Source: Halichondria panicea (lineage: Eukaryota > Porifera > Demospongiae > Suberitida > Halichondriidae). From it: a DNA stretch of 64,000 bases. The position numbers were made by a program, and so were the translations under genes. The stretch lies in the NCBI RefSeq assembly GCF_963675165.1, contig NC_087379.1, positions 1,423,201 through 1,487,200 of the forward strand. The letters are read 5' to 3'. Below the pieces are notes generated by a model that ran no database searches, was not told where the DNA came from, and was given only the letters and a program-made list of their open reading frames with translations. This document shows positions 821-40,155 of the stretch, piece after piece; positions within the stretch are counted from its first letter, which is position 1, and each line of letters opens with the position of its first letter.

Positions 821-2492
<1,672 letters not shown>

Positions 2493-2663: not shown

Positions 2664-5600
2664 ATGGCGACTACAATTCAAGAGAAGAGACCTAGGAGTG
2701 GGTTGTTTCACAAACAAATGTCCACAGAGGAGCTGGTTTCTTGGCTGAGGGAGGAAGGCCTTGGACATAAGGACTGTGACATAATATTGGGTGGGTATGG
2801 CTCCAGCTAGCTCAGAGTAGAAATGACTATAATGACTATAATTATATTGTAGACAATGGATTTACTGGTACATCGTTTCTTCTTCTGGAGAAAAACGTAG
2901 TGAAAGAGTTGGGTATCAAGATGGGTGGTCAGATCATGATCACTAAGCTCAAGAAAATGGTAATTTGTGTGTATGTGTGGAAAGATAATTAGGAAAATCA
3001 TTTTGTGTGTAGACTAGATGGTGCTGTATGTACATGGAGCTGGCTATAGTTGTTTCGATTTCGATATAATGTGTACTCTGTGTTTCCAGGCTGAGGAGAT
3101 ATGCGCTGAGGTAGATGATCGATTGACCTTTGATACTCACTCGACCGTCCCAAATGATGATGTGAGTTGAAATATGATATGAGTTGAAATATGATGTTTG
3201 TTATTGTAATCCCATTCATTTTTTCCTACCCTCGGCCTCAGGGTCGTGTGGTGGTGCCTCCTGCTAGTACACTGATCATCAATGATATCAGAGAGAGCTC
3301 ACCCACTGGGGGGACCAGCACTAGTGGGGTCCAGGTGAGAGGAATGTGTGTGTGTACACTGGGGGGACCAGCACTAGTGGGGTCCAGGTGAGAGGAGTGT
3401 GTGTGTGTACACTGGGGGGACCAGTACTAGTGGGGTCCAGGTGAGAGGAGTGTGTGTGTGTACACTGGGGGGACCAGCACTAGTGGGGTCCAGGTGAGAG
3501 GAGTGTGTGTGTGCACTGGGGGGACCAGTACTAGTGGGGTCCAGGTGAGAGGAGTGTGTGTGCACTGGGGGGACTAGTACTAGTGGGGTCCAGGTGAGAG
3601 GAGTGTGTGTGTGTACACTGGGGGGACCAGTACTAGTGGGGTCCAGGTGAGAGGAGTGTGTGTGTGTACACTGGGGGGACCAGCACTAGTGGGGTCCAGG
3701 TGAGAGGAGTGTGTGTACACTGGGGGGACCAGCACTAGTGGGGTCCAGGTGAGAGGAGTGTGTGTACACTGGGGGGACCAGTACTAGTGGGGTCCAGGTG
3801 AGAGGAGTGTGTGTGCACTGGGGGGACCAGTACTAGTGGGGTCCAGGTGAGAGGAGTGTGTGTGTGCACTGGGGGGACCAGTACTAGTGGGGTCCAGGTG
3901 AGAGGAGTGTGTGTGCACTGGGGGGACCAGTACTAGTGGGGTCCAGGTGAGAGGAGTGTGTGTGCACTGGGGGGACCAGTACTAGTGGGGTCCATGTGAG
4001 AGGAGTGTGTGTACACTGGGGGGACCAGTACTAGTGGGGTCCAGGTGAGAGGAGTGTGTGTGTGTACACTGGGGGGACCAGTACTAGTGGGGCCCAGGTG
4101 AGAGGAGTGTGTGTGTACACTGGGGGGACCAGTACTAGTGGGGTCCAGGTGAGAGGAGTGTGTGTGCACTCCCCGACCAGTACTAGTGGGGTCCATGTGA
4201 GAAGTGTGTGTGTACAGTGACCTTCCTATTACCATGCATTAAATAATAGTTAGACACTGTTTTGGAGGTGTCTATGGGATTCAGAAGCCCAAAGGCACTG
4301 ATTTAGTATCCCGAGCGTAGCGAGGGTACTAAAGTGGCTGAGGGCTTCTAAATCACATGGACACCGACAAAACAGTGTCTAACTCATTTAGATAGTAGTG
4401 CGCATGCGCAAACTGCTTGACTACAATACAATTACTTGACAACGGAATACTAGGTATACTAAGTAAATTTGCAGGTATACTAAGTCCCATAGTATACCTG
4501 CTCTGAGGCACTTTTCCCATGTACTTCCCATGTAGATCTTATCAACTAGTGTCTAACTATAGCTAGTATAGCACTGATTGTATTATGACTCTTGTTGTAG
4601 GAGATGAGAGACCCTCAAGAGTCACCCACCAGGCAGCAGGGAGAAGAAGATGTGAGTGAGTGGGGACGGTTGCATTTAATAACTGATTAACAACAGCATT
4701 GAAATAGTTACTTTACTCTGACTTACTCTGGTATGTAGGTGACGAGAGAGCCAGTGTCTCGAGTACAGTCTAGTGGAGACGTGAGCAATGGCATTGTCTT
4801 AGTTACAGACTTAACTTTTTTCTTTCTTCCTACAGGGCTTCAGAGAAGAAGATGAGGTAAATAAAAGTCGTACTTTTACACTACTAATGCACTGTATGCA
4901 TACGTTACCTCAAGAGCTTGTCCTACCCATTATGATTTCGTATCACAATCTAATACCAGCAAATCCCCCGCCACACAGGCTCCTGTGTACTGCACCCAAG
5001 GCCTTGAGTCGGGCACTAGTGTGTTCTCCTTTGATCACACTGTGCACATGTACCGCAATAAGATATGGGCCGGGAGAGAGCTACTCAAAGTGACTTTTCT
5101 GAACCCTGACGTTCTCAACAGTTGGGGACTCACTAGAGACAATATCCTCGACTGGGCCAAGGTCTGGGACGTTGAAAATGAGAAAGTACCAACGTTCACT
5201 TGTTCCAAAGCAAAAGGAGACATTCGAGTGAAGTTGTCTGGTACGTATTGTAGTGCGGAGTGTAGTTAGTTCAGTACAGTCTCTGTTTGAAGGGAAATTG
5301 CGTTCCATGTATCAAAAAACCCTTTCAGTAAAGGCTCGAATAACTTATTTTTATGTTTGCAATCATACATGTATATACTTCCACAGACACTGAGGGATGC
5401 TGGTCAGCAGTGGGCATGGATGCAGAGAAGATTCAACCAGTAACTGATCCGACCATGGTCCTCAATCTCAGAGGACTACCAGCGCACCTCCAGAGGAGTC
5501 TGGTCATCCACGAGTTTGGACATGCCTTGGGGCTCGATCACGAGCACCAGCGCTCTGACTTCTGGGACGTTATGGGCGGCTATTTCGATAAAAAGAGGAT

Positions 5601-7001
5601 CCCTCAAGAACAATACACGAGGGTAGTCAAGAAATCTGATGCAGTGGATAAGGACAGAGTGTTGGAGTACAATCCCAACAGCATCATGCACTACTGGTGA
5701 GTGTGGGATTTGACCCATGCAACCCTATATGGATCTTAAAGACTATTTATTAATCCAATTTTACTACGTTTACGGAGTTGCGTACTCTTCCTAACGACTC
5801 TTGACGGTACGTGTACACACACATGTACGCATATATATAGATTTTGTACTTGCAATTCTTACATGACTGTAATTAACCACGCTGTTTTGAATGTTGTTTA
5901 GAGATGTGGGCCATTTACGCACGTAGAATGACACACTCATATCACAATGCCTGTACGTGGTCTGTACTCTGGTACTGTCACTGTGTATCCTAATTTTACA
6001 TGCTTAATTGAGCAATGTGGTGGTGTGTGTATGTTCACTGCTGCTCTTTATTAAATGAATTGTCAAGGTTTGATCTTGCTTGGTTGGAGAATCCTCGTCA
6101 CCGTATCCATGGTAACATTGAGGGTGACAACACACTGTCACCGACAGACAAACGATACCTTCTTGGAGTGCACAAGAGACAGGGAGAGGGCAAACTACCC
6201 AGTGACCCCTCAACCATCGACAAGCAATATCTAGTGGACATTTATGGTAGGTATATTGCTGGGCAATTTTCAGGCAATTTCCAAGAGCAAATTTTAGGGG
6301 GAGGCATGTTCGTACTTTGGCATTTAAAATTCCAAGAGAGGGCAAACCAAATCCAAACGGGGGGCAAAAGCCTGGTATAACATTTGTGTATTTTCAACAC
6401 CTCATTGTAGCCACTGTTGGTATCTGCCAAGGGTGACTGCCTATTGTAGCAGTATGTACTTGACACCATTACACCTCCAATACAGTTAACGATGAGCTGA
6501 GACAAGTGTCATCACCTGTGCCTCGACGAAAGGCAAGACAGTTGTCTCCTGCTACAAACACAAGACCCAACACTACCACTAGAGCAGCTCCAAGAAACCC
6601 TCAGTACAACAGTATTGATAAAACCGGTATGCATATACATGTACGTACGTTTGATTGGTTGTGCACTTATCTAGTCGTATGAGGTAAAGCTACAAAGTTG
6701 ATTCTTGTTTATTTCTGTAGACTCTGTTTTGCAAGTGAATGTCCACAAACAAGAGATTCTGAACACTATTTGGGATGTCCGTGCCCAGTGGAGAGTGATT
6801 GGTGCATATCTGGGCTTGTCGGTCGGTGAACTGGATGCAATACACGCTAACTCCAGTGACTACCTCAATAATGTCCTAGTGTCATGGATCACTCAAGGGA
6901 ACAAGTACATTGAAGAGTTACTGGTCGTGCTCCGGTCCTCAGCAGTGGGCAGGGCTGACCTCGCTGAGAAAATAGAGACCCTGAGGATTTTTAAACGCTA
7001 G
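2664..7001 (+). CDS. SAM - metzincin zinc protease - death domain protein
   Basis: Twelve exons yield 561 residues in one frame: 2664-2790, 2853-2959, 3090-3161, 3242-3334, 4601-4651, 4739-4780, 4836-4856, 4979-5240, 5387-5696, 6068-6246, 6486-6626 and 6721-7001. There is no signal peptide. The N-terminus is a SAM domain (STEELVSWLREEGLG; VVKELGIKMGG). A linker of small exons follows, four of them phase-symmetrical. The protease core starts at IWAGRELLKVTFLNPDVL and carries zinc motif HEFGHALGLDHEHQR and Met-turn NSIMHY. A helical segment (DKRYLLGVHKRQ) follows, and the C-terminus is a death domain (IWDVRAQWRVIGAYLGLSV). The HExxHxxGxxH motif predicts an active zinc endopeptidase. SAM and death domain predict recruitment into intracellular signalling assemblies (inference). 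Intron 4 holds an exon/donor minisatellite and a MITE. An inverted paralogue lies at 18676-23270. Confidence 0.82.
3335..4213 (+). repeat. Minisatellite of exon-end plus splice-donor units
   Basis: About 17 tandem units of roughly 48-54 bases follow the genuine fourth exon of the SAM-protease-DD gene. Each unit repeats the last coding bases (ACCAGTACTAGTGGGGTCC) and the donor context CAG|GTGAGAGGAG, then a variable GT run. Units differ mainly in GT-run length and a C/T at the ACCAG(C/T)AC site. Together they present a ladder of near-identical 5' splice sites. Confidence 0.95.
4247..4385. mobile_element. MITE-like inverted-repeat element in intron
   Basis: TAGTTAGACACTGTTTTGG at the left end is inverted as AAAACAGTGTCTAACT at the right end, with further internal complementarity (AGAAGCCC/GGGCTTCT). 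It lies in the intron after the minisatellite of the SAM-protease-DD gene. No ORF is present. Confidence 0.75.
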
Positions 7002-7179
7002 TAATCTTTTGTTTTCTGTGGTGTGTGAGTGTTGGAATTGTCTATCTGTGCAATGTGCATGTTATTGACTGAAGACAGGGGGGTGAATTTTATAATCCGG
7101 GGGTTTAATGCAACAACTGAGATGGGCGTGGCTGGTAAGACTTGCTTGCTTGCTTGTTTGTCTTGGAAGTGAATGTATA

Positions 7180-9260
7180 ATGGCGTTGAGAACTCTAGAC
7201 CTGTCACCAGGAGAGGTATGTATAGGTGTGTGTTACAGTGTATGTATAATAATTATACTGAGACTGACTACATGCATACATGCATGCCCGGCTGCTTTAC
7301 AGCTAATAATTATACTAATGATCTGCTTGCATGATTCGAAAGGGATCGCCATCAGCGCACGAACCAGGTGGCTGAATTTTGTTCAATATAGGAGTACTTT
7401 TTTAGACTTTTATTTGTGGTTGAGGAGTAATTTATCATTCTGTTATTGGTTAATTAATGAGCATTTATATCTTCTATCGCTGTATCTCATGCAGCTGCCT
7501 AGTGACTCTAATGGAGATGTGGAGGAGGCTTGTCGTAGACAGGTGAGACTCCACACACAATCACATTCTGACGTATATGTGCTTATATACAAGGGCTAGC
7601 AGTTGATACAAAAATATAATAATTATACTTCCAACTGTTACTAAATTGTTTGTCCCAAAAGTGAGCTGCAAAGCGCAGCAGAGCTAGCTTAATAATTACA
7701 TTTCGATAATTATGTGTTCATTAAGTACTCCACAATATACATTATCTCGATCTTGTTAATGCTTCTACACCTATACAGTCGATTCCAATGTGCCCCTTAT
7801 CGCCACATTCTGACGATGAAGGTGATCAGTCTACAGATAGTGGTGAGGCAGCTGCTGTGGTTGTGAAGAAGAAGATTTGGAAGGAGAGAGAGCAGCTTAA
7901 TGTGCTCTTCATGAAACCTGAGGTTCTAGAGGGCTGGGGCATTGGAGTAACTCCCCAGATAATCTTGGAATGGGCTGGTGTCTGGAGGCGAGACAGTAAC
8001 AGCAAAGTGCCAATGTTTAAACAAACCACAAGCACCAGGCGTGCGGATATACGAGTGGAATTCTCAGGTATTATAATAGTACTTATAGCTGCACCTCACG
8101 CAATTCATAAATTTATTTAAGAGCCAGTTTTCCAGGTACCTTGTGCAAACGTACTGTGATTGTGCAAACTGTGATTGATTGAGCTATTTTTATTTCAGAC
8201 GAAGGCGGCTGCTGGTCGATGATCGGGAAGCGTGCAGAATCAGTTAAAAAGCCTGCTCCGACAATGATGCTAAATCTCTCCAATGACTACTGTGCCGATG
8301 AGCAGGGAAAGAGGAGTCTAGTCATCCACGAGTTTGGACATGCCTTGGGCCTTGATCACGAACACCAGCGCTCCGATTTCTGGGACGCGGTGGAACCTTA
8401 TTTTGACGTCACACGAATGAAGGATGATTCTCGTGTTTCTGATGCTCACTCTGAAAAGGATATGTCGTCGTTCGGAAAAGATTGGTTCAAGAAAAGATAT
8501 GGTGAGAGAAATGGAATCAGACGATTTTTCGGAATCAAGAAGAAATCCCAGGAGCAGAAAGTGGAAATGTCAGAGTATGATTCAGACAGCATCATGCACT
8601 ACAGGCGAGTTTGGTGATATTGCTCGTATTCACAGTATGCAGTGTATAGGGCCACCCTTTAGGCCAATAGAGGTTGTAATAAAGATGTGGCCTGCTAACA
8701 CAGATCAAACACATGTCATGAGGCCCATTAACCTAGCTGGTTGATTATATAGAGGGGGCTTGAAGTTGTGGTGTAGTAATAAAATGACCATGATTATTAT
8801 TGTGTTACTTGATTTGCAGTTTTGATGTTGACTGGTTCAAGGATCATCGTCTTCGTCGCAAACAGAGTCTGAAAGCAATTCCCGACACAGAGATAGATCC
8901 AAAGGTTAAGACGTACCTCATGGGAGTTCACAAGAGGCACAACCGTATGTCTAGGGACCCCTCCAGTACTGATCTGGCTTCCTTGGAGAGTGCTTACGAT
9001 AGTAAGTAGAGTACGGTATATTACTAGAATATTTTGTTGGTGAAAAACCTTTGCGAATGAGCCAAATCAGCAGAAAATTTGGCAATCAACTATTGCGTTC
9101 TGGCAAGAATCGTGTGTATTTACTAGGAAGGAGTAATTTAGGTTTTGTGGATTTTATTGATCAACCCTCGCAAAGTTCGATGCTCGCAAAACATTATAGT
9201 AATACATATGGTACATGTAAATTAACTTCAATGACGGGTTTTTATTCCCGTGCAGGTTGA
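7180..9260 (+). CDS. Metzincin zinc protease, no SAM or death domain
   Basis: Six exons give 321 residues: 7180-7215, 7495-7542, 7779-8067, 8199-8604, 8820-9001 and 9256-9260. The start MALRTLDLSPGE and the second exon (LPSDSNGDVEEACRRQ) are a short acidic leader like those of the genes at 27012 and 38043. The protease core has IWKEREQLNVLFMKPEVL, a CWSMIGKRAES segment, zinc site HEFGHALGLDHEHQR and Met-turn SDSIMHY, then a C-terminal helical segment (VKTYLMGVHKRHN). It ends soon after LESAYDS, where death-domain paralogues continue. The fourth intron appears to use a GC donor (CTACAG|GCGAGT). It is convergent with the next gene. A cytosolic peptidase is likely; substrate unknown. Confidence 0.75.
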
Positions 9261-9826
9261 GTGCTGCTTCTCAGGCTGAACAAACTGCTGGATTATTTGT
9301 ATGTGAATTACTGCTAAGGCTAGAGTGCTTATTAGTAATTGTTTTTTTTTTATATCAGTGTACATGCAGGTATGTGTCTGTTAGAGCCAGAGTGCTCCTT
9401 GTTTAGTTGCTATGAACCTAGGGATATCGATATAATATAGTACAGGCAATAATAATAATTAAGTGCACGCATGCTTTTATTATGGAGGTGCATGCAATCA
9501 ATTATGCCATTAATCATGGGTCCTGGTTGCAATTGTAAGATGTAAAAACTGCTAGTAAGTATAATTATAAAAACGTACATGTATATACAAGACTTATATA
9601 AAATTAATTGTGATAATTATATACATCTAGTTAGTAAAAATGTTAGCACCTGCACTCTATAAAATGTAGCCAATCTTTGTGCTCAGATCATAATTATCAC
9701 TTATATATTCATTAAAACACACAACTTCATTTTGATGTAAAACAAGACAAAATACTCAAAAAATAACGGCAAGTCAGTTAATTAACACTGGGATAAAGTT
9801 CTGCAGCTTTGCATAGGCCAGGTGCA
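9261..9826. other. AT-rich convergent intergenic region
   Basis: This is the 3'-to-3' gap between two converging protease genes. It is AT-rich with several TTATATA/AATTATA runs. No exon, RNA gene or clear repeat was seen. Confidence 0.5.
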
Positions 9827-12800
9827 TCACTTGGTAACTGAATTAAGAAGAAATAACACAATAATAAGTGTGAGGTGGGTATACAATTGGCACAGCTTAC
9901 GATAGGCATCTTTCAGAAATTGTATATCAATTGATGATGGGTGTTTGGCATAGTCGTTGTGCCTCTTGTGGATACCCCTCAAATACATCTTCTCCTTGTC
10001 TGAGAGTTTAGGGTCATGGTCTAACGTTCTCCTATGACGAAGTCGTGGGTCTTTCAGCCAGTCCTTGTCAAACCTGTGTATATATATATACATGCAGCGA
10101 AGCATTGTTACTACACAGTACAGTGTTATAGATGTCATACATGTATAGAAAAATTGTAGAGAAGGAAGCTCTTCATGAATATAGGGGGAAACTCATCCAA
10201 GCAAATAAGGGTCATGGAAAAATGCATACATGCAAGTATTAACAATGCTCAAAGCTAGCACCTCACACATCCAGAGCTGTTTCATTGTTATTTCTGACAT
10301 ATACATGTACAGTAGACACACACACACTCACCAGTAGTGCATTATGCTGTCTGCGTCATATTCAGACAACTTTCCCTTTTCCTTCTTCTTGAGCCAGTCG
10401 TTACCGAACGCAGCCTTTCCTTTCACGGATGAGTAGTCTCCTGTGCGTGAGTCGTGCCCCATAGCTTCAACGTTCAAATGTTTCTCAACCACATCCCAGA
10501 AATCGGAGCGTTGGTGTTCGTGCTCGAGCCCCAAGACATGCCCAAATTCATGGATGACCAGATGCTTTTGAAAATCTTGAGGGAAGCCTTTGAGGTTAAA
10601 TACCAAGGTTGGTTCCTTGGAATCTTTAACTTTCTGTGCATCCATACCCACCTTCGACCAGCAACCACCCGTCTCTGCAATATCATCATAAAAGCATAAT
10701 TGTGGAAGAAGTTAATAATTATGTATAAGAGAAGAAGTTAGCATACCTGAGAACAGAACACGTATATCTGCTCTCTTGGCAGATTCATTCACAATGAATT
10801 CTGGAATGGCATCGCACTGATTCCAGGCATCATTAGCCCACTCCAATACCATACTGATAGACATGGACTTTTTACTAAATCCATGTCCACTCTTCCACGA
10901 CTCGAGAACGGAAGGGTTTAAGAAATGCACTTTCAGAACTTCTCTCCCCTTCCACAGCTTCTGAGTACGGACATAAGCAGCTGCTGCACCCTGTGTCCCA
11001 ACACAGTCAGCGTCTGTTTCTTCCTCTGGTAGCTCCGGAGGTCCCATGCAGCGTGGTGTCGTCTGTATCAAGATAACTACATGACATTTTCAGTGTTAAA
11101 TTCGATGAAAAGATGAATACAAATATGACTTACTCCCAAAGTATATAATTTATATAACACGGTTTTTGTCACAAAATTATGCTTTCCTGGGGCTACAAAG
11201 CTCAAGTAACAATTATGATTACGCCAAACACAAAATGCTCACAGTTTTTGAAACTGTTTGGGTACAAAACTGCAAGTTCTACACGTGCACTTACTGGTTT
11301 GTACTGTGGACCAACTTCTCCTGTTTCCATCTCCTCCGAATCCTGCAAGTTATAGTTAAACAATGGCCTCGAGTGGTATATTTGATTTACACGCGAGAGT
11401 AATCTGATAAACCACGAGGCGCAGCCGAGTTGGTTTATCTGATTACTCGAGCGTGTAAAGCAAATATACCACGAGAGGCCATAGTTTAACTGGCTTGTAC
11501 TATGTTTAGAACTGTACTACTATGTTTAGCTACTTCCTGTCATGCTTCTTCAATGAATATGCTTATAACTACTGTTTGCCGTCACTGTTGCTATAGCTAT
11601 GCAATGAATTTGCTATTTTTTTAAAAAGCGATGGCTGATTCAAGCAAGCGTCTATGATTCAAGCAAGCAATTGTGAAGGCTGTGTTTCTGCATCTTTATA
11701 GAAGGCACTTCAAGAAAGTACACTGGTGCTACTTGTCTACAAAGAGTGCAAATGTACCCCAAAATATCATTCCACAAGCCTACTGTACTGGCCCAGTGCA
11801 GTGCAGTCTCTTTAGTCTGAGAAACACTTGGCAGTCTGGACCCTTCTTACTGCTCCTGGTCCCATGCAGCAATGTAATAAGCAGGTTGTGACAACCAATG
11901 TTGAAAGTTGAAAAAAAGCAACACAAACAAACCAGTATCGTTCGATTCACGATCACGGAGTTCTTCCAAATTTGCCTCCTTTTTGGAACTATTCATCGCT
12001 CGAACTTGGCTCTTTTTATGTTGACTAAAATCATTAGTATAGTAGTCTGTTTTGTATTGAATTCTCTCTAACTCTAATATTGCTAATATTGATTGAATTG
12101 AGTAGTGTGTCATTGTTTTAATTGAAACAGTGTGTCAATTTTGTTGCAAAGGTGGGATACTGTATTCAGTTCTAGCTGTACATGTAGTTTGACCACAAGC
12201 CATGGTATATGGCTGTTATACACTAGGGTATAACAGCCATATACCATGGCTGTGGTCAGACAGGTTGTATAAGTAGTATAAACTACAACTGAAGCCTTTG
12301 ATCTTTGGTGCAACCATAGTACAACATACAATACACCATATCACATTTATTTTTATTACCGAGTAATACAATTCCTGAACATACGTACTCAATAATCTCT
12401 TAATTAAATGGTGTGGTCCAGCCTGACCATGGAAATACTTACCACTAATTTGAGCAATATTTCCTGGCCCACTTGTCCGAGGCCCATATCTTGGCAGTCC
12501 TCTTTCGTCAACAATACGACAGATTCTGGAGTGACTTCTTCGGCTGCAAAAATACATTGTTTAATAGTACAAATGTATACAACACATTCGATACCAGCTA
12601 GAACTTAGCTTTATGCTTACTGCAGGCCGTAACTTAACTAGGCTTACTGCACAGCCTGGCAGCATTAAACTAGATAACCAATATCAGTTCTTACAGCTCT
12701 CACGACCTAGACTCACAAGCAGTCACTGTTGCAGGCTAACTGTTCGCCTGCAACAGTGACGGCTTGCTAGTCTACTCACGACCAGCTAAATGAATTTATA

Positions 12801-12906
12801 ATCTAGCTTCATACATACCTTTCAGAGTTTGACAGTCCTCTTGGCTCAGTCCCATCTCTTTCAGCCGCTCTACAAGATCATCTGTTGACGGCTGCTTCAA
12901 CGCCAT
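9827..12906 (-). CDS. SAM - metzincin zinc protease
   Basis: Read on the minus strand, seven exons give 359 residues: 12819-12906, 12443-12543, 11295-11342, 10747-11062, 10332-10674, 9901-10073 and 9827-9837. The first two encode a SAM domain (STDDLVERLKEMGLSQEDC, then KEDCQDMGLGQVGQEILLKL). A 16-residue acidic exon leads to the protease: LWKGREVLKVHFLNPSVLES, zinc site HEFGHVLGLEHEHQR, Met-turn DADSIMHY. The helical tail (KEKMYLRGIHKRHND) is followed almost at once by a stop, so there is no death domain. The 950-base second intron holds three palindromes (11353-11490, 12191-12257, and 12722-12760 in the first). A possible extra exon near 11935-12010 does not fit the frame and was left out. 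Confidence 0.72.
11353..11490. mobile_element. Long foldback (MITE-like) element
   Basis: TAGTTAAACAATGGCCTCGA and onward is inverted at the right end (AGAGGCCATAGTTTAACT). Both arms carry matching TTTATCTGATTACTC-type sequence around a central CGAGGCGCAGCCGAG core. The element is about 138 bases, has no ORF, and is intronic in the SAM-protease gene. Confidence 0.85.
12191..12257. repeat. Near-perfect 31-base inverted repeat
   Basis: Arms 12191-12221 and 12227-12257 are complementary with about one mismatch (core CCATGGTATATGGCTGTTAT), separated by 5 bases. This would form a strong hairpin in either DNA or RNA strand. It is intronic in the SAM-protease gene. Confidence 0.9.
12722..12760. repeat. 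15-base perfect inverted repeat
   Basis: GTCACTGTTGCAGGC (12722-12736) and GCCTGCAACAGTGAC (12746-12760) are perfect inverses with a 9-base loop, in the first intron of the SAM-protease gene. Confidence 0.9.
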
Positions 12907-13110: not shown

Positions 13111-15887
13111 TCAAAGGCCGAGATCTTTTCTTTTTTGTTCATCATCAATTCCCAAAATCTCGTCAGCTATATCGTCCTTACTCACAGTAAGTGATCTGAG
13201 AGCATCAATCAGCTGGTTTGTTTTTGCCTTGCCTGTGTGCATCCACTTTTTCAGCACGTCCTCATACTTGTCTTCAACGTTGTGATAGTTAGTGTTGATT
13301 GCCTCAATGTCACCTTCTGTAAGCCCCAACTCTCTACCTATCATCTTCCATTTACTGCGAGCTTCCCAAGTTGCATTTATGATATGTCGTAAATGCACAT
13401 TTATTTTCAGGGTAACTCCACCTATACAGAGTTAGTACATGGTAATATTAAGTCAAGGAAGCATTGTATATACGTGTCCTTACCAACAGTGGATGGTTCT
13501 TTTCGTGTTACTAAAGTATCGAAATTCTCAGGAGCAATGAACTTCTTGCCTGTAGTGAATGTTAATACATAATTAATTATTAGACTGCTATTATATCACT
13601 CAGCTCACCATAAGCCTCCACTAGTGCCTTGTAGTCATTCTTTGAAGGGTGCTTGAGCAGTTGGCCTCCCTGGCTTCTCTTAACAATGCCCTTGAGATAC
13701 TTCTTCTCTTTGGTAGTCAGTGAGGTGTCACTCCCAATGGATTCTGCAGAACGATGTGCTTTATCTCGTATCCATTTCACTTTGAACCTATTGTGATAAT
13801 TAAATAAAAGCGTTGATTATCTAAAATGAATACACAAAGTCATAACAATATGTATGCTTTTACATTTGCTGCATACAGGCATAATCACGGAGAAACTCAA
13901 AGAGTAGGAAATGATAGAACACGATTGTTGTTAAAAAGGATGCAAAGTTTTCTATAATTATAAGCTCTTCACACTCTTGCAGCTAGCGTTTTAGCTAGTC
14001 CAGAGCTAACTTCTAAGTAGAATAGCAACACTCTATAACAAGTTTTGCTAGTGCACTCTTTCTGAAAAGGTATTCAAAGTAGGCATAATTTTGTAATTTT
14101 GAGAACGAAGCGTTATTTTGCAAATCCATGCATGAGTTGTAAATTATTACGTATTAGCATAATCATAATTATGACTCACGAGTAATGCATGATACTGTCA
14201 GGATCATACTCAGGCACGCTTTCCATGGGCATAGTCTTCTTTTCTAACTTCAACCAATCTTTTCCAAACGACTGCCCACCATCATTTTCTTGACGGGGGT
14301 TCACAAAGGTGTCATCTTTCATTGTATCCATGTCAATATGTTTCCCGACCACATCCCAGAAGTCTGAGCGCTGGTGTTCGTGCTCCAGTCCCAGGGCATG
14401 CCCAAACTCGTGGATGACCAGACTCTCCTGGAGCTCTGCCGAATGACCCAGGAGATTCAACACCATGGTTGGCTTGCTCATATCAGTGACAGTCTCAGCA
14501 TCCCTACCCACCATCGACCAGTTCCCTCCCGTCTCTGTACACATACGGTAGATATATTTTAGATGCTGAAAGAGATGATTGCTTTACCTGAAAACTTCAC
14601 TCGTACGTCGGCTTTTTCGGCCTTCTCTCTCCAAGCAAGGGAAGGGATGGCGTCGCTGAAGATAGACACATTCCAGACCCGTGCCCAGGCCAGCACAGTG
14701 TTGAAATTCATGGGCTCTCCACGGCTTTTCCAGTTGTCCAGCACATCAGGATTCATGAAGTACACGTTTAGCGTTTCTCTCCCCTTCCAGATTTTCTCAC
14801 GATCAACATGTGCAGCAGCCCCACCGTTAGAAGTCTCAAGAACTTCTTTCGAAGTATCTACTTCAGGGGGACTCATGCAAGCAGGCTGTAGAAAACACTG
14901 TAGTAGGTACGTTTGTTTATGGTGTGTGGTGGTGGTTTCTTACATATTTTGGGGTTTCCCCGTTGTCAGTACTCTCTTCAACTTGTGGTGGTTGATCATC
15001 AGGGACAGCCTGCTAGATAGACAAATAATGTAAAAAGAACATAATTATATAAGGGGGATTTACCACCAATCATTGAATGCCTTGAAATTTAGACTTTGAG
15101 ACTGTACAATGTAGCCACTTTATACTCTTACGTCAGTTTGTGGAGTCACAGCACTAGCAGGCTTCGTATCATCGGCACTGGCAGGCTTCGTATCATCAGC
15201 ACTAGCAGGCTTCGTACCATCAGCACTGGCAGGTTCTTTCGTCTCTATAGGGTCTATATTGACAGGCTCCCTTGCACACGTCTTAACCTACATACATGTA
15301 ATCATAAAGAAGCAATAAAATAAAGCTACCAAATTGAAATTAATTAGATTAGGGCATGCACGCCTCTAGTCTAGTCTGGCAAGCAGACGTCAGGTCCTGC
15401 CCCCTACCCGGTACGCGTATACGCGGTACCCCCTTCTGAGACTCTTGCAATCATATTACCGTAAAACCTCAATTTAAGGCAACACTTTTAAATAATTACG
15501 TTTTGCGAAAGTAGAGTTTTAATGTACGCAAAAAAAATGAATTTATATGGTGCTATATGGGCAAAATGTCCAAGTGTCGCATATTTAGAGGGTCGCCTTA
15601 AATAGAGGTTTTACGGTAATAATTTATTATATTGAGCTACCTAGTAACTCACTAACCAGTATCTTACACTTGTCCGGAAGGCTGTTAGGATTGCGTATGT
15701 TCACATACATATCAAAGTCTGTGCTCCAGTATTGCAGTAAGGAGATTCTTTGATTTTTAGCAAGGACATCGGAAAGCTCTTGATCCACTATTTTGACCAA
15801 GTCACCGAGGCTACAGTCAGCTGGGTACTGCACTATCAAATTGTTCTCTCCCAGAATAGCCACTGCTGCTTTCATGTTGCCTGCCAT
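13111..15887 (-). CDS. Beta-grasp-like - metzincin zinc protease - death domain protein
   Basis: Eight exons give 553 residues: 15657-15887, 15132-15287, 14944-15009, 14588-14885, 14180-14534, 13609-13787, 13484-13549 and 13111-13421. Instead of SAM, the N-terminus (about 77 residues: VAILGENNLIVQYPADCSLG ... ISLLQYWSTDFDMYVNI) looks like a ubiquitin/PB1-type beta-grasp domain; this is a tentative call from pattern only. A linker with four KPASADDT-type octapeptides follows. The protease has IWKGRETLNVYFMNPDVLD, zinc site HEFGHALGLEHEHQR and Met-turn PDSIMHY, then the helical segment (EKKYLKGIVKRSQGG). A death domain ends the protein (ARSKWKMIGRELGLTEGDIE). The same order and exon sizes recur at 16199-18437, so the pair arose by tandem duplication. 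Confidence 0.8.
15151..15231 (-). repeat. 24-base coding tandem repeat (octapeptide linker)
   Basis: Three to four units of 24 bases encode KPASADDT/KPASADGT repeats in the second exon of the beta-grasp-protease-DD gene. The unit length keeps frame. The paralogue has a related but different repeat (EPVSADPKETKE) at the same place. Confidence 0.85.
15455..15620. mobile_element. MITE with ATTACCGTAAAACCTC ends
   Basis: ATTACCGTAAAACCTCAATT at the left end is matched by the inverse ...AGAGGTTTTACGGTAAT at the right end, with internal TAAGGC/GCCTTA complementarity. It is about 166 bases, noncoding, in the first intron of the beta-grasp-protease-DD gene. Confidence 0.88.
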
Positions 15888-26500: not shown

Positions 26501-26750
26501 ATAAGAGGCCACCATAAGTTAGGCACCAGCTGGGCTGAACGCAATTTAAAAAAGATGTGACTTTCAGATTATTCTAGTCTATGGTTGCATATTTATAATT
26601 ATTGAAACACTCCTAACCCCTTGGTTACATCACAGCCTTACCTCTCAAGCGCTCACAATCTTCAGAGCCTAGTCCTTCAGCTTTAAGCCAGACCATCAGC
26701 TCTTGAGTTGTCATCGTAACATTGAAAGACATTGTCGGTGGTGCTTGCAT
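23531..26750 (-). CDS. SAM - metzincin zinc protease (divergent)
   Basis: Seven exons give 378 residues: 26642-26750, 26206-26306, 25011-25064, 24540-24828, 23913-24291, 23647-23836 and 23531-23545. The SAM domain is split over the first two exons (TTQELMVWLKAEGLGSEDC; KEDIKELGIEMVDHLEHLL). The protease is the most divergent intact copy. It begins at LWDIKCLKVAFLNPEGL, keeps HEFGHALGLGHEHLR and Met-turn PDSIMHY, and has a longer insert before the Met-turn (SSSRGKRATFERDYYD). The tail ends after a short final exon (VNPQ), so there is no death domain. The second intron contains a 676-base transposon. It is head-to-head with the next gene (262 bases between the start codons), suggesting a shared promoter region. 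Confidence 0.72.
24312..24485. repeat. Possible decayed foldback element
   Basis: GAGTAATTTTCG at the left and GACCCTCTGTACGGTA at the right resemble the ends of the element at 19385-19572, with partial internal complementarity (TTTTCGTA/TACGAAAA). It is intronic in the divergent SAM-protease gene and too decayed to be sure. Confidence 0.4.
25252..25927. mobile_element. DNA transposon relic with about 120-base terminal inverted repeats
   Basis: The left arm (25252-25375) and right arm (25813-25927) are long inverted repeats sharing TTGACCTCAGGTATG, CAGAGCTGCA/TGCAGCTCTG and TTTCACCTCACTTGAAAT. The interior has broken coding remnants, such as TQLLQITGRSKAAATLCC and KRLGFTRKKAKHI, reminiscent of a DDE-transposase helix-turn-helix region. 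Stops interrupt it. It is intronic in the SAM-protease gene at 23531-26750. Confidence 0.8.
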
Positions 26751-32440: not shown

Positions 32441-32808
32441 TTATAAGATGGTTGTGCTGACTTTTGAGCACAGGTGGCCTATAGACCGACGAGGCTTTGA
32501 TTCGAGAGCACTCAGGAAAGTGTCGAGATAGCAGTTAGGGCTTCGAAGCCACTTCAGCAGCATTGCATGGAAACAATCTCCAACGTTCCAATGATTGTTT
32601 ATCTGAATGCCATCCAAATCAGACTCAGACAAACCCAGATAATTCCCAATGCCTAACCACTTGGTCTTTCCACTATACGCAGCGTCATACAGAGCGTTGA
32701 GGTACGGCTTGTCGGAGGGGGAGAGTTTGACTGTAAAAATGAATGCATGTATGGATATAGAACTTGCAATATATATAGAGGAGTCGGTGGTGACTGACTG
32801 ATATACCG

Positions 32809-33014
32809 TATAGCGGGAAATTTTCATGAGGCATACCAAGTTTTTCGAGGGTAGAGCAGTTAATGCGAAATTAAAACTGGGAGAAACTTCCACGCACCGG
32901 TATTTTAATAGTTCTTGGTGGGTGTGGTTTCCTGGCATTGAAACGCGAATATTATACAACTACGAAACTCTCTTTTGAGGGCTCTCAAGCCATTTAGCGA
33001 AAATTTCCCGCTAT
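32809..33014. mobile_element. MITE with TATAGCGGGAAATTTTC ends
   Basis: TATAGCGGGAAATTTTC (32809 onward) is inverted at the right as GAAAATTTCCCGCTAT, ending at about 33014. It is about 205 bases, noncoding, inside an intron of the C-terminal relic. Confidence 0.85.
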
Positions 33015-33158
33015 GTGTGTATGCTTTAGGGTATAGGTTTTGAGGACAATAATGTTGCAAGCTTCCTATATAGATGATCTATACGTCCTGTGGGAAATGT
33101 GGACATTATATTATTATGGTGCATATAACTATAGGATGCAATAGTCAAAATCCCTGCT

Positions 33159-33245
33159 ATGGAGGAATCGGTATCGCAGCAAATGCCAAAGAAAACCTCA
33201 GAAACAGTGAGGAAGGTGTTTATCAGTTACTCACATACCACATTG
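33159..33245 (+). pseudogene. Possible orphan exon of a TIR/SEFIR-type domain
   Basis: An 87-base open stretch beginning ATG and ending at a good donor (TTG|GTAAGC) encodes 29 residues ending RKVFISYSHTTL. The VFISYSH box is typical of the first strand of TIR and SEFIR signalling domains. No following exon could be found in the next kilobase, so it is probably a stranded fragment. The call rests on a short motif. Confidence 0.3.
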
Positions 33246-34096
33246 GTAAGCTTACATATGTACCCTAATCCCAACACAACTATACTCACATAAGACAAAT
33301 TAGTTTAACATATAAATAGGCTCAGTTCCTAAGCATCATGCAGGAATTAGAACAATTTCTTATCAAGCCCGTCTCTTATCAGCAGCTAATGCATGCATGA
33401 AGATGTTTTCTAGTGAGTGTGATGGTAAAATATTTCTGTGCACTATAAATCCACTCACTTTGCCCGTGGGAAGGTGCAGCTAGCTGTAAGTGTAGCTGAC
33501 CTGAGGCTGATCCATGGGCGTCTACATGCATGTGCGTGAAAGATAACATACAGTATAATGTTACAGTATAATGTTACAGTATAGCTTTCGTGTTTCTGTA
33601 GTACTTACTGTTTGTGGCCGGAGAGGGTGACACTCCTCCTAAAATTACAAAAATATTCGTATTATAGCTAAACACCTTAGAGCATGCAGTAGTTAAATTT
33701 AAATAGCAACCGGGGGTAGCTAGATGTTCGACCTTGAGAATCGGAAACGGTGGGCAAAATGTAATGCATAAGTAAAGCTATACATATACATGTATGATTT
33801 TGTGGATGGACACAACACCGTAAATCTTCTGTAGAAAATCAAGATCTTTCTTCGAAGGCCCATTAGCATAACTTAGATGTCTTTTTTCACTGAGACTGCC
33901 ATCAGCCTCCACTTTTGATAAATCTCGAGTCTTGTGCTCCTTCTTTTTAAGCCAGTCCACATCAAACCTATATATAGACATGACATGCAACAGATCATAG
34001 CCAGCCACCTTCGGTATAGCCTCGATTCAAGCCTGGTGGCCTGGTTTCGAGGCCTGATCATATACATGACGTCACCCGAAACGCGGATGGTTTCAT

Positions 34097-35101: not shown

Positions 35102-35559
35102 TTCTATTGCGTTTCCAATCCCTCTCCCTCCTATCTATGGTACAGTGTAGCTTGTCAACTTTTAGCAATGGTGAACAATTTTAAACCATACCCCTTTTGA
35201 ATGCTTGCGGTACATTTTTGCATTTTTGTGTGGAAATTCTTGAAATGCCATCGTTCCGAAATTCCAGAACTGTACACGAAAACCTGGCAATAGTTACCAT
35301 ACGTAGTATCAGATTGTGGAGTATGGCCCGCGAGACTACGTGCAGGGTTGTATCAGTTCACCAAAGTTGTACTCAGCCCCACCCCTCATAGCTAAATACT
35401 CTAACGACCGTTTACCACAGCGTTCTGCAATGCATTCAGCCCCAACCCTCTTATCATTCTGTGTGTACTGATCCTTTACCAAACCTTCAAACATAATTAT
35501 ATAAAAATAGGAATACACATTGGGACTAACTACAACTTATGCTAAACAGATTTCTTTTG
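35102..35559. other. Arm of an inverted duplication, noncoding
   Basis: GGGGTGGGGCTGA and CAGAACGCTGTGG-type sequence here is the inverse of 40330-40470, downstream of the protease gene at 38043. This shows that the pseudogene and that gene belong to one inverted duplication that includes their 3' flanks. No exon is seen. Confidence 0.55.
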
Positions 35560-37660
35560 TTATGGGGATCCTGTACAAAACAAAACAGTTTTGAATCACA
35601 ATAATTGTAACACATTATTTTATCCTTACTCTTGTATGCATCTTCCAAATATTTCAGGTCTGTAACAGAAGGATCCTCTGCCAGAAACTGCCTTTTGTGA
35701 AGGCCTTCGATGATTACTTCGTCTTCCTCTGGTATACCACTATCACGCAGTGACTTGAGTCTACGCAGATCCGGATTCTTGAACCAGTGTACATCGAACC
35801 TGAGAAGAGATAAATCAGTCAACCACCCAATTATTGGAGCTAACATAAGACAAAGTGCAAAGTGAAGATAAATAGAAATTCAGTGCACATTTACCCATAG
35901 TGCATGATGCTGAGTGGGTCATAGTCTTGTGACAAGGTGTACTTTTTCTGAATTTCATATTTGTCCAGTCCATGCCAAATGTCGAGACTCCATCTTTTGA
36001 ATTTTTAGTACTGAAACGATCAGAATCATTCGTTGTCTTAATTTCTTGTCAATGTACTTGTTTAAAACCTGCCACAACTCTGACCGCTGGTGTTCGTGCT
36101 CAAACCCCAAGGCATGTCCAAACTGATGGATGACCAGACTTCTCCTGCTTCTTATTTTGCTTGACAATGATAAATTCGTCAGTAAGATCTAGCACCATAG
36201 TCGGCTTGCTTCCGCACTCTTTGGCATGCATGCCCACCATTGACCAATAACCCTCTGACTTGGTACCTTTCATCTCTAAATAAGTGGGGGGGCAAATCAA
36301 GTTGACTGTACATACTTTTAATTGGCTTACCTGCAAACTTGACTCGTATGTCGGCCTTGTTTAATACTTCACATAGGTTAAATTCTGGAATGTTGCTATT
36401 CATCGGATCTTTCCGCCAGGCTTCGTTAGCCCAGTCCAATATTTGCTGAGTAGTCACTCCAATACGCCAGCTATCTAGGACTGGAGGATTCATGAAGTAC
36501 ACCTTAAGTATCTCTCTCTGCCAAACTTTTTCACATTGAACCACAGCTGCGGCTCCATCATGATGCTCAGTTTCCGCTTGGAGTGGTAGTGGTTCACATT
36601 CGGGCCCAGTTGAGCAGAACTGTATTGAGAAACAAATTACTGAGTATAGACACATGCATACATGCAATCTCCAGTTCTACAAGACTCCTGTAAATAATCA
36701 TATTCAAGTTGAGCTTGGCGCTCATTAGCTTTTACAGCTACATATATACCTCCAATGCGTCGTCACATGTCTCAATGAAAACCCCACCTATAGTACTACA
36801 TGTATACACTCACCGCACACATCTCTTCTTCTCCGTCCACGTCACTAGGTAACTGTACACGGCAATAATACAAAGGTTGATTGCCATGCATACATAATTA
36901 TAATGTATAGAGACTATTATATTAGTTACGGACCATAGCATCCTTTATGGAGGAAAGAGGCCATTTATGTTACCTTTAAAAATCTCCCACAACTCGTATA
37001 AATTAAGTTGTGGGCGGATGGAATGCAGAGCTACCAACTGTACATGATGCAGTGTTTGTTCATGAATTATTCATGATTGTTTTTGAGACATTGTTTCTTT
37101 TATGTGTTATACTGTTGCACTACTCATAAGTAACTATTACAGCGCTTGCTAGCTATCAGTACGCTAACTAGATGGCAAAACTTTACCGCAAAGATCTTGT
37201 GGGAAAAATAGTAGAGAAAGAAAGACTCAAACAAGAACTAAACAGTGACCTAGTAGCAGTTTATGATATTTCTGAGGGCGGCTATTCAAACTGAAGAAAA
37301 ATACCAGAGTTTACTAGCTATAGTCGGCTAGTTTTCTATACTTCTATACGAGCTAACTTGATGACTGTTTGTAAAATTGTTTTGACATTAATCTCACAGA
37401 GCTAGTAGGGCACTCAAGCCACGACAATACATCTTACACTGAATGAATGACAAGCCCCCACCTCCCCCAGTACGGCCATAGCCTGGCATAGGTGGGGATT
37501 GATATGTAGTCTACGTGCAAACAATATATTGAAGACACATTAATTTTGTAGCAACTTAGCCAGACAGCTACAGCTTTTCAAGAATTAATAAACATAATGG
37601 CCCTATAGGCAACATAAACTTGTACTATAGTCTACTTACCTGATCTCTTCCCTCAGCTAT
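35560..37660 (-). pseudogene. Metzincin protease pseudogene with HQFGH active site
   Basis: The exon layout matches the genes at 27012 and 38043: 37640-37660, 36814-36852, 36331-36619, 35895-36275, 35630-35799 and 35560-35570. Several lesions are visible. The start codon is ATA (AAAATAGCTGAG where paralogues have AAAATGGCTGAG). At least two frameshifts lie in the fourth exon, one before RRSLVIH and one after NKYIDK. The zinc motif reads HQFGHALGFEHEHQR, replacing the catalytic glutamate by glutamine. The other exons and splice sites remain recognisable, so decay is recent. An inactive decoy is conceivable, but the frameshifts argue against any full-length product. Confidence 0.8.
37172..37294 (+). 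CDS. Hypothetical 40-residue ORF antisense to the pseudogene intron
   Basis: Second copy of the ORF at 27921-28043 (MAKLYRKDLVGKIV ... YDISEGGYSN), intact with a few substitutions. It lies in the first intron of the protease pseudogene, on the opposite strand. No family recognised. Confidence 0.25.
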   Translation: MAKLYRKDLVGKIVEKERLKQELNSDLVAVYDISEGGYSN

Positions 37661-37820
37661 TTTGTGCAATGTTTATATATCACCTTGGTTGTTCGACTTC
37701 TCCAAGTTTATAAACAAAGGTATCATTACTGTTATTAAATGTTTAATATTTTGATACCACAAAAAAGTGAGTTGTAGGAACAATTCAGATCATTCCAACT
37801 TTTGTCCAAGCTTTCTGGCT

Positions 37821-37910
37821 GTGCAAATATATGGCATATTGCACTGCGGTGACTTGTTAGCTTTGATGTGCCTGGCTTCACTGTGCAATATGCCATATAT
37901 TTGCACTGTG
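37821..37910. repeat. Foldback at the centre of an inverted duplication
   Basis: GTGCAAATATATGGCATATT and its inverse AATATGCCATATATTTGCAC flank a roughly 37-base loop. It sits between the pseudogene and the intact gene at 38043, near the symmetry point of their inverted duplication. One arm recurs at 38728-38756. Confidence 0.8.
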
Positions 37911-38042
37911 GTTTCTTTGATCTTTTCCTCAAACATGCAACAAGAGTATAAATGTTCGTGGTTGCATTGGCCTAACATAATAACATTAAATTGGAGAAGT
38001 CGAACAAGCCAAGCTTCAGGTGATATATAAACATTGCACAAA

Positions 38043-40155
38043 ATGGCTGAGAGAAGAGATCAGGTAAGTAGACTATAGTACAAGTTTATGATGCTAGCCC
38101 AGGGCCATTTATAAATAAATTCCTGAGCTATAGCTGTAGCTGTCTGGCTATTAAAGTTTTTTTGGCTACAAAATTAATGTGTTCTTCAATATAATTATTG
38201 TTTGCACGTACATATCAATCCCCACCTATGGCCGTACTGGGGAAGGTGGGGGTTTCTCATTCATTCAGTGTAAGATGTATTGTCGTGGCTTGAGTGCCCC
38301 TACTAGCTCTGTGAGATTAATGTCAAAACAATTTCACAAACAGTCATCAAGTTAGCTCATGTAGAAGTAGAAAACTAGCCTACTAGCTAGTAAACTCTGG
38401 CATTTTTCTTCAGTTTAAATAGCCGCCCTCAGAAATATCATAAACTGCTACTAGGTCACTGTTTAGTTCTCGTTTGAGTCTTTCTTTTCTATTTTGCCCA
38501 CAAGATCTTTGGGGTAAAGTTTTTCCATCTACAAGCGCTGTAATATGAGTAGTGCAACAGTATAGACACATAAAATAATAGAAACAATGTCTCAAAAACA
38601 AATCATGAGCAAACACTGCATCGTGTACAGTTGGTAGCTCTGCATTCCATCCGGCCACAACTTAATTTATACGAGTTGTGGGAGATTTTTAAAGGTCACA
38701 TAAATGGCCTCTTTCCTCTATAATTTCACTGTGCAATATGCCATATATTTGCACTGTGGTTTCTTTGATCTTTTGCTCAAACAGCAACAACTAATAAAAT
38801 AGTCTCTATTTAATAATTATGATTATTATGTATGCATGGCAATCAACCTTTGTATTATTGCCGTGTACAGTTACCTAGTGACGTGGACGAAGAAGAAGAG
38901 ATGTGTGCAGTGAGTGTATACATGTATTACTATAATTATGAAGGTGGGGTTTTCATTGAGACATGTGACAACGCATTGGAGGTATATATGTAGCTGTAAA
39001 AGCTAATGAGTGCCAAGCTCAACTTAAATATGATTGTTTACAGGAGTCTCGTAGAACTGGAGATTGCATGTATGCATGTGTCTATACTCAGCAATTTGTT
39101 TCTCAATACAGTTCTGCTCAACTGGGCCCGAATGTGAACCACTACCACTCCAAGCGGAAACTGAGCATCATGATGGAGCCGCAGCTGTGGTTCAATGTGA
39201 AAAAGTTTGGAAGGGGAGAGAGACACTTAAGGTGCACTTCATGAACCCTAAGGTTCTAGAGAGCTGGGGTATTGGAGTGACCCCTGAGCAGATATTGGAC
39301 TGGGCTAACGAAGCCTGGTGGAAGGGTGAGGACAGCAACGTCCCAAAATTTAAGCCGTGTGAAGTATTAAACAAAGTCGACATACGAGTCAAGTTTGCAG
39401 GTAAGCCAATTAAAAGTACATACAGTCAACTTGATTTCCCCCCCCACTTATTTAGGTACCAAGTCGGAGGGTTGCTGGTGGGCAAGCATGCCGATAGGTG
39501 CGGAAGCAAGAAGCCGACTATGGTGCTAGATCTTACTGACGAATTTATCATTGTCAAGGAAAAAAAGATTCAATACAGGAGAAGTTTGGTCATCCATGAG
39601 TTTGGACATGCCTTGGGGCTTGAGCATGAACACCAGCGCTCTGAGCTGTGGAAGGTTTTAGACAAGTACATTGACACGGAGAAAATGAATGATTCTGATC
39701 GTGTCAGTACTAACAGATCAAGAGATGGAGTCTCGACATTTGGCATGGACTGGACAAATAGGAACTTCAAGGAAGGGAAAAAGTACACCTTGTCACAAGA
39801 CTATGACCCACTCAGTATCATGCACTATGGGTAAATGTGCACTGAATTTCCATTATCTTCACTTTGTCTTATGTTAGCTCCAATAATTGGGTGGTTGACT
39901 GATTTATCTCTTCTCAGGTTTGACATGGACTGGTTCAAGGATGAGCGTCTGCGTAGACTCAAGTCACTGCCAGATGATATACCAGAGAAAGACAAAGTGA
40001 TCATCGAAGGCTTTCACAAGAGGAAGTTGCTGGCGAAGGAGCCTTCTGATACAGACCTGAAATATTTGGAAGATGCATACAAGAGTAAGTATAAAATGAC
40101 GTGTTACAATTATTATGATTCAAAACTGTTTTGTTTTGTTACAGAATCCCCATAA
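38043..40155 (+). CDS. Metzincin zinc protease with apparently retained intron
   Basis: The exons are 38043-38063, 38871-38909, 39112-39830, 39918-40084 and 40145-40155, giving 318 residues. The leader is MAERRDQ plus LPSDVDEEEEMCA. The protease starts VWKGRETLKVHFMNPKVLES, with zinc site HEFGHALGLEHEHQR and Met-turn PLSIMHY. Paralogues have an intron at the place equivalent to 39401-39455. Here those 55 bases have usable GT/AG ends, but splicing them would break the frame, because seven bases are missing just downstream (the CWSMVG region). Reading through the former intron keeps one frame. The usual CWSMVG segment is replaced by intron-derived residues (PIKSTYSQLDFPPHLFRYQ). Function may be changed; the zinc site is intact. 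Confidence 0.7.

What the first reader, a model, noticed from the sequence alone, without database searches (positions are those of the whole stretch)
2664..40155. A clustered family of intracellular metzincin proteases fused to SAM and death domains
Seen: eight protease genes with an intact HEFGHxLGLxHEHxR zinc site and SIMHY Met-turn, plus one with HQFGH, most also carrying SAM, a beta-grasp-like domain or a death domain, and none with a visible signal peptide or propeptide. Known: astacin and matrixin metzincins of animals are normally secreted; death and SAM domains assemble intracellular signalling complexes. Inference: this is a death-fold-recruited protease system, analogous in logic to caspases in apoptosomes or inflammasomes but with a zinc protease as effector. 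I know of no described family with this architecture.
Basis: partly seen in the sequence, partly recalled or inferred. Interest (0 to 1): 0.92.

Follow-up and report, generated by a model that had tools for sequence, protein, structure and literature searches.

The report
Cytosolic astacin-like proteases with death domains
This animal genome carries a large family of protein-cutting enzymes that look as if they stay inside the cell, many of them joined to death and SAM domains, the connectors that normally switch on cell-death and immune machinery, which could make them a zinc-enzyme counterpart of caspases.

Summary
The window holds ten catalytic sites, nine HEFGH and one HQFGH in a broken gene. 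Four of nine carry SAM, two an unassigned small domain, four a C-terminal death domain, three none. The death domains match FADD by profile (1.6e-6). A protease-free SAM-death-death gene lies at 821-2492. The models show no signal peptide or membrane stretch by hydropathy, no propeptide motif, and three of four canonical disulphide cysteines are missing in at least 7 of 8. At least 47 places on nine contigs hold the catalytic part; further fusions occur on other contigs. In the tree sampled, the family is one clade apart from the genome's own canonical astacins, on the bacterial side. Most likely: intracellular astacin-like proteases recruited through death-fold or SAM contacts. Transcripts, location, activity and immune role are untested; the beta-grasp label is unconfirmed. 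My paper searches found no description of this architecture.

The parts
821..2492 (+). SAM-Death-Death gene without protease (314 aa, 7 exons), candidate adaptor
   Evidence: spliced, phases agree; Pfam Death 3.1e-8 at 224-287, SAM_3 0.099 under cut-off; middle Death only 0.076; SAM exons by iterated HMM
2664..7001 (+). g1: SAM - acidic linker - astacin-like protease - Death, 561 aa, 12 exons
   Evidence: SAM_2 8.9e-4, Astacin 6.5e-12, Death 3.5e-4 (SAM and Death just under the curated cut-offs)
7180..9003 (+). g2: protease core only, about 320 aa; 3' end approximate; in-frame upstream ATG at 7108 with a hydrophobic stretch
   Evidence: Astacin 1.2e-11
9827..12906 (-). g3: SAM - protease core, 359 aa, no Death
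   Evidence: Astacin 9.6e-9; SAM by local HMM, first exon only
13111..15887 (-). g4: unassigned small domain - protease - Death, 553 aa
   Evidence: Astacin 1.4e-10, Death 1.9e-10
16199..18425 (-). g5: unassigned small domain - protease - Death, 566 aa
   Evidence: Death 4.1e-9, Astacin 2.1e-7; one ORF 16199-16867 spans protease tail exon and Death
18676..23270 (-). g6: SAM - linker - protease - Death, 533 aa
   Evidence: Astacin 1.4e-10, Death 9.8e-4 under cut-off; SAM by local HMM only
23531..26750 (-). g7: SAM - protease core, 378 aa, no Death
   Evidence: SAM_2 9.2e-5 over cut-off, Astacin 1.2e-8
27012..29666 (+). g8: protease core only, 311 aa, in-frame stop five codons upstream of the ATG
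   Evidence: Matrixin 8.4e-9, Astacin 7.7e-8
32444..34026 (-). gene remnant: protease tail exon plus Death exon, no catalytic exon found
   Evidence: Pfam Death 6.2e-4 under cut-off
35529..36676 (-). g9: broken copy with HQFGH, frame changes and stops
38043..40155 (+). g10: protease core only; needs a shifted acceptor near 39463 to stay open

Best explanation
A lineage-expanded family of intracellular zinc proteases with an astacin-type catalytic core and a conserved tail exon. Many copies are joined to protein-interaction domains: SAM, an unassigned small domain, or death-fold domains N-terminally, and a FADD-like death domain C-terminally. Proposed working: an upstream receptor or the SAM-Death-Death adaptor nucleates a death-fold/SAM assembly; the protease joins through matching domains; crowding or cleavage switches it on; it then cuts cytosolic targets in a cell-death or immune response. 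Shown from sequence: catalytic residues, fusion in continuous reading frames, absence of recognisable secretory features in the models, dN/dS below 1, expansion. Inferred: expression, cytosolic location, assembly, activation step, substrates, immune role.
For: Zinc site: in 18 aligned catalytic exons from seven contigs the three zinc His, the Gly and the family Glu are invariant; the catalytic Glu is present in 17 of 18. Profile matches myroilysin at 2.7e-12. Single-chain fusion. Death profile to FADD 1.6e-6, RIPK1 9.4e-5, p75NTR 6e-4. No membrane stretch (highest 19-residue hydropathy 1.18 over ten models). No FxGD or PRCG motif in ten of ten models, adaptor included. Cysteines present in 5 of 5 canonical astacins of the same genome are present in 0, 6, 1 and 0 of 8 family members. 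dN/dS of protease 0.35 (g1/g6) and 0.36 (g4/g5), Death 0.36 (g4/g5) and 0.57 (g1/g6) (no significance test). Outside the window, 14 genes read as exons: 5 of 14 with C-terminal Death, 9 of 14 with some extra domain. Protease-free SAM-Death-Death gene next door.
Against: No RNA, protein or activity data. Three of nine window genes and five of 14 others show no recruitment domain. g2 has a possible signal-peptide ATG upstream and cysteines at both places of one disulphide pair; C7 copies have 2A leaders. Pfam scores under curated cut-offs: Death in g1 and g6, SAM in g1 and adaptor; no Pfam SAM at all in g3, g6. Outside the window the C-terminal Death of L040 and L044 rests on a local HMM without Pfam match, L043's was not put to Pfam, and in L044 it lies over 3 kb from the protease tail. 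g8/g10 dN/dS is 0.79. The AlphaFold model of the protease is poor (pLDDT 45). Death domains abound here (148 matches, 503 first-look candidates of which 150 scored), so presence alone does not mean immunity.
Confidence: 0.55

Rival explanations
1. The fusions and cytosolic location are real but the family is not a death or immune effector: for example a developmental or housekeeping signalling protease, or a scaffold in which proteolysis is secondary.
For: Death and SAM domains serve many pathways (general knowledge); core-only copies exist (g2, g8, g10; L047; L049); open HQFGH catalytic exons (L041, L049) suggest some members may not need catalysis.
Against: Clustered, unequal expansion with broken copies and mosaic divergence is what conflict genes often show (general knowledge); FADD-like Death; neighbouring IL-17-like genes, a weak match.
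Confidence: 0.28
2. Secreted proteases: a signal peptide lies in an unseen 5' exon or in leaders such as the g2 upstream ATG or the 2A leaders on C7, and the proteins act outside the cell or in dual locations.
For: g2 upstream in-frame hydrophobic leader at 7108-7179 and cysteines at both places of one disulphide; 2A leaders in L045, L046; astacins are described as extracellular (PMC9848320, passages).
Against: g8 and g10 have in-frame stops five codons before the ATG; SAM and Death are intracellular domains (general knowledge); disulphide cysteines mostly missing.
Confidence: 0.12
3. Protease and death/SAM exons belong to separate neighbouring genes that only look joined.
For: No transcripts examined; splice sites were chosen by eye.
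Against: Phases agree in the models; in g5 one ORF spans protease tail exon and Death; the phase-1 junction that leads to Death in g1, g4, g5, g6 leads to a short stop exon in g3, g8, g10; recurrence on several contigs.
Confidence: 0.05

Closest known systems
Astacin family M12A (PF01400), above all bacterial myroilysin
   Same: HExxHxxGxxHExxR, SIMHY, family Glu; eight of eight models g1-g8 exceed Pfam's Astacin cut-off; myroilysin is the best PDB match
   Different: No signal peptide recognised, no FxGD prosegment motif, disulphide cysteines mostly missing, fused to SAM and Death; separate clade from this genome's own canonical astacins in the tree sampled
Caspases recruited by FADD, RAIDD or NLR complexes (recalled)
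   Same: Logic: protease plus death-fold domain in one chain, with a death-fold adaptor candidate present
   Different: Zinc metalloprotease in place of a cysteine protease; recruitment and activation not shown
Death/TRADD-N multi-domain immune proteins of Amphimedon and other marine animals (PMC8195603)
   Same: Lineage-specific expansion, death-fold N-termini, swapped effector domains including caspase
   Different: The section read names caspase, PNPase and HD effectors for Amphimedon, no metzincin; TRADD-N was not tested here
Bacterial conflict systems with rare metallopeptidase effector (PMC7159879)
   Same: A metallopeptidase in effector position of signalling systems (passages)
   Different: Bacterial; no astacin-Death fusion in the passages seen

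Membership tests
Astacin (M12A) as defined in PMC9848320 | HExxHxxGxxH plus ExxR and family Glu; SIMHY Met-turn | tested here: met
   nine of nine HEFGH frames in the window hold SIMHY. The full ExxRxDRD motif is not met after ExxRxD
Astacin (M12A) as defined in PMC9848320 | Catalytic domain matches PF01400 over cut-off | tested here: met
   8 of 8 models g1-g8 (31.3-46 bits against 22.5); g10 model not scanned
Astacin (M12A) as defined in PMC9848320 | N-terminal signal peptide | tested here: not met
   hydropathy of modelled N-termini only, no SignalP available; the g2 upstream leader leaves it open for that gene
Astacin (M12A) as defined in PMC9848320 | Prosegment with FxGDI aspartate switch | tested here: not met
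   no FxGD in the nine protease models
Astacin (M12A) as defined in PMC9848320 | Two or three disulphides in the catalytic domain | tested here: not met
   cysteine columns 0/8, 6/8, 1/8, 0/8 against 5/5 each in canonical; g2 alone has cysteines at both places of one pair
Death domain superfamily | Profile match to Death | tested here: met
   g4, g5, adaptor over cut-off; g1, g6 under; profile of six to FADD 1.6e-6
SAM domain | Profile match to SAM | tested here: inconclusive
   g7 over cut-off, g1 0.7 bits under, adaptor 0.099, g3 and g6 none in Pfam; related by local HMM
Beta-grasp / ubiquitin-like | Profile or fold match | tested here: inconclusive
   no significant match, low-confidence model
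Death-fold-activated proteases (works like) | Recruitment to a death-fold platform and activation there | not testable with these tools
   needs biochemistry

The most novel reading that the evidence does not exclude
A death-fold-controlled zymogen. In this family the SAM or death-fold arm and acidic linker stand where an astacin's propeptide would be. Just before the catalytic core lies a run of small residues: Ala/Gly/Ser at 65, 55, 74 and 71% of 31 copies at positions -11 to -8 before the conserved Trp, and 3% at -7 (g1 and g6 lack it, and the 31 include close paralogues and broken g9). Mature astacins start with two alanines at -9 and -8 (recalled). The Glu that binds that new N-terminus is invariant in 18 of 18 exons. 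Assembly on a SAM/death platform would trigger cleavage there and the freed end would lock the active site: an apoptosome-like switch built on a metalloprotease, possibly of bacterial origin. (Odds lowered from 0.25 to 0.2 on re-check because g1 and g6 lack the small pair.)
Probability: 0.2. Interest if true: 0.92.

Novelty: new variant of a known kind. Interest (0 to 1): 0.74.

Why it matters
In animals, death-fold platforms are best known to fire caspases and kinases, and astacins are described as extracellular enzymes. A family with dozens of astacin-type copies, many wired to FADD-like death domains or SAM, would show that another protease class was recruited to death-fold signalling in an animal, and would give a directly testable effector (zinc chelation, Glu-to-Gln mutant).

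Tried and rejected
AlphaFold of the small N-terminal domain and protease gave poor models; the Foldseek search with the first had no match under E 0.001. The small-domain profile against PDB gave nothing. A SAM_2 search of the genome did not list this family's SAM, which is split by an intron. The idea that HQFGH marks a clean pseudoprotease in the window was dropped: g9 is broken, though open HQFGH catalytic exons exist at L041 and L049. Horizontal transfer from bacteria was considered: the tree puts the family with 26 of 27 bacterial rows against the canonical astacins (branch 100/98), but those bacteria were collected with the family's own motif, so it stays a lead. Relatives in other animals could not be searched (no eukaryote collection open; this genome has no relatives held). 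Paper searches bearing on the architecture. Six papers were opened, for passages or one section only: PMC8195603, PMC9848320, PMC12909245, PMC8353272, PMC4981915, PMC7159879. No whole paper was read.
Full report
WHAT IS THERE. A pattern scan for the zinc site with up to one mismatch finds 10 places in the window, all exact, against 0.66 expected; 0 of 100 shuffles reach 10. Nine read HEFGH and one HQFGH. The window lies in a 131 Mb genome of 39 contigs, unnamed. Iterated HMM searches of six-frame ORFs resolve the genes into exons: SAM (two exons) or a small domain, a protease N-part, the catalytic exon, a tail exon, and in some a Death exon. I chose splice sites by eye and checked phases by script. 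All chosen introns are GT-AG except a GC donor in g2, and phases agree between paralogues, with g10 needing a shifted acceptor (sequence read).

GENES. Nine protease models: g1 SAM-protease-Death; g2 core; g3 SAM-core; g4 and g5 small domain-protease-Death; g6 SAM-protease-Death; g7 SAM-core; g8 core; g10 core (doubtful). Thus SAM in 4 of 9, small domain in 2 of 9, Death in 4 of 9, none in 3 of 9. Pfam in single chains: g1 SAM_2 8.9e-4, Astacin 6.5e-12, Death 3.5e-4; g4 Astacin 1.4e-10 and Death 1.9e-10; g5 Death 4.1e-9 and Astacin 2.1e-7; g7 SAM_2 9.2e-5 and Astacin 1.2e-8. Death in g1 and g6 and SAM in g1 lie under the curated cut-offs; g3 and g6 have no Pfam SAM. A SAM-Death-Death gene without protease stands at 821-2492. 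g9 is broken in three frames, and 32444-34026 is a tail-plus-Death remnant.

ONE PROTEIN OR TWO. In g5 a single stop-free ORF spans the protease tail exon and Death (16199-16867). At the end of the tail exon a phase-1 junction leads either to the Death-bearing exons (g1, g4, g5, g6) or, in g3, g8 and g10, to a short exon with a stop; g7 ends in a short exon at a slightly different junction, and g2's end is uncertain. Across the genome, 11 of 47 family places have a Death hit on the same strand within 10 kb downstream, against 0 of 40 canonical astacin places; within 3 kb it is 5 of 47 against 0 of 40, all five in the C3 cluster. About 0.5 would be expected at 10 kb from 278 evenly scattered hits; that number is too low as a background, because only 150 candidates were scored in each, although the two lists also overlap in part. 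For at least three of the 11 (C3:1412343, g7, C1:5411466) the nearest Death belongs to, or lies beyond, another family gene. The 47 and 40 were counted by me from the tables and include partial and broken copies. Paralogy inflates the test; the reading frames are the stronger evidence.

THE FAMILY. Catalytic parts lie on C1, C2, C3, C6, C7, C8, C9, C12 and C14 (a lower bound). In 11 fetched stretches (L039-L049) I read 14 further genes as exons, not as spliced models: C-terminal Death in 5 of 14 (L039, L040, L043, L044, L048), some extra domain in 9 of 14, core only in 5 of 14. Pfam confirms Death over cut-off in L039 (6.8e-5) and L048 (1.3e-5); the N-terminal one of L046 gives 0.0039 and that of L040 0.17, both under cut-off; the C-terminal ones of L040 and L044 have no Pfam Death match, only the local HMM (1.1e-5, 1.5e-6); L043's has local 8.3e-20 and was not put to Pfam. 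The small domain in L041 and L042 is weak by the first local HMM (0.0012, 0.0084). With the window that makes 9 of 23 with C-terminal Death and 15 of 23 with any extra domain.

CHEMISTRY AND LOCATION. Among 18 aligned catalytic exons from seven contigs, the three zinc His and the family Glu are invariant; one of the 18 has HQ and ends MHW. No model (nine proteases and the adaptor) has a hydrophobic 19-mer above 1.18 or an FxGD or PRCG motif. Four cysteine columns present in 5 of 5 canonical astacins are present in 0, 6, 1 and 0 of 8 family members. g2 is the exception with cysteines at both places of one pair, and it also has an in-frame upstream ATG at 7108 followed by a hydrophobic stretch. 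g8 and g10 have in-frame stops five codons before their ATG. SignalP was not available.

KINSHIP. The catalytic profile finds myroilysin at 2.7e-12, then tolloid-like 1 at 9.2e-6 and BMP1 at 9.3e-5. The same genome has 40 places with canonical astacin matches at 83-188 bits (some are pieces of one gene), whereas the family's listed places score 25.8-45.3; two of the canonical ORFs fetched, L132 and L133, begin with a signal-like stretch by eye. In a tree of 53 rows (20 family, 6 canonical, 27 bacterial) the family is one clade (99/93), the canonical ones another (99/95), and a branch of 100/98 parts canonical plus one bacterium from family plus 26 bacteria. Of 80 prokaryote loci, 27 gave a usable stretch; they were collected by the family's own motif, so bacterial origin is a lead only. 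Death profile: FADD 1.6e-6.

SELECTION. Pairwise dN/dS: protease 0.35 (g1/g6), 0.36 (g4/g5); Death 0.36 (g4/g5), 0.57 (g1/g6); whole g8/g10 0.79; no significance test was made. Synonymous divergence differs strongly between exons of one pair (g1/g6: Death 0.06, tail 1.45, SAM saturated), pointing to exon exchange or conversion.

HOW IT MAY WORK. The anatomy fits a protease brought to a death-fold/SAM platform. No propeptide motif is seen, so latency must come from elsewhere. In 31 N-parts the positions -11 to -8 before the conserved Trp are Ala/Gly/Ser in 65, 55, 74 and 71%, and -7 in 3%. Mature astacins begin with two Ala at -9 and -8 (recalled). Together with the invariant family Glu this suggests cleavage between linker and core as a switch. 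Against it: g1 and g6 lack the small pair, the run is wider than two residues, and no cleavage is shown. This is inference.

NOVELTY. The astacin review describes the family as extracellular with signal peptide and prosegment, and its text has no word beginning with 'death' (passages). The Death/TRADD-N paper names other effectors for Amphimedon (passages and one section). The Dysidea NLR paper has no 'protease' or 'peptidase' in its text. 'Astacin' with 'death domain' gave 11 papers, all listed; 'metzincin' with 'death domain' 15, of which 10 listed. I opened two of them (PMC8195603, PMC7159879); by title and abstract start the other listed ones do not describe this. Subscription papers and protein databases were not searched.

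VERDICT. A real, expanded, apparently intracellular family with an unusual architecture; function is inferred.

Noticed in passing
window 40795-50831, minus strand: Five small secreted-looking genes of IL-17 type: of two scanned, one has Pfam IL17 E 0.0051 (under cut-off) and the other none; the profile of five finds only IL-17F in PDB at E up to 1 (0.066), while a single sequence finds nothing. PMC8353272 found none in Amphimedon queenslandica but mentions one Pfam entry from it (passages).
   Followed up: partly
L045:2168 and L046:1445: 2A recoding peptide (DVETNPGP) at the N-terminus of the C7 paralogues, before a CARD-like stretch (no Pfam match) and a Death domain; sea-urchin NLRs carry similar 2A leaders (PMC4981915, passages).
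   Followed up: partly
L046:5092-6306: Large ORF with a P-loop GTPase look (GVTGSGKSTTINAMLG) just downstream of the C7 protease; not scanned.
   Followed up: no
window 3304-4216 and 21795-22675: Matching minisatellites of about 50 bp (18 and 17.6 copies) in introns of g1 and g6; the unit contains the splice-donor sequence of the preceding exon.
   Followed up: no
L041:6126-6464, L041:8810-9001, L049:5672-6019: Family members with HQFGH: possible catalytically dead paralogues. The L041:6126 and L049:5672 catalytic exons are open; the L041:8810 copy is split between frames.
   Followed up: partly
window 7108-7179, plus strand: In-frame upstream ATG and hydrophobic stretch before g2: possible signal peptide or artefact of an untranscribed region.
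   Followed up: partly
window 44740-44871 and 47568-47684, plus strand: Further fragments of the protease tail and N-part between the IL-17-like genes.
   Followed up: no
whole genome G000: Very many death domains: 148 matches at E 0.001 or better, 503 candidates in the first look of which 150 were scored.
   Followed up: no
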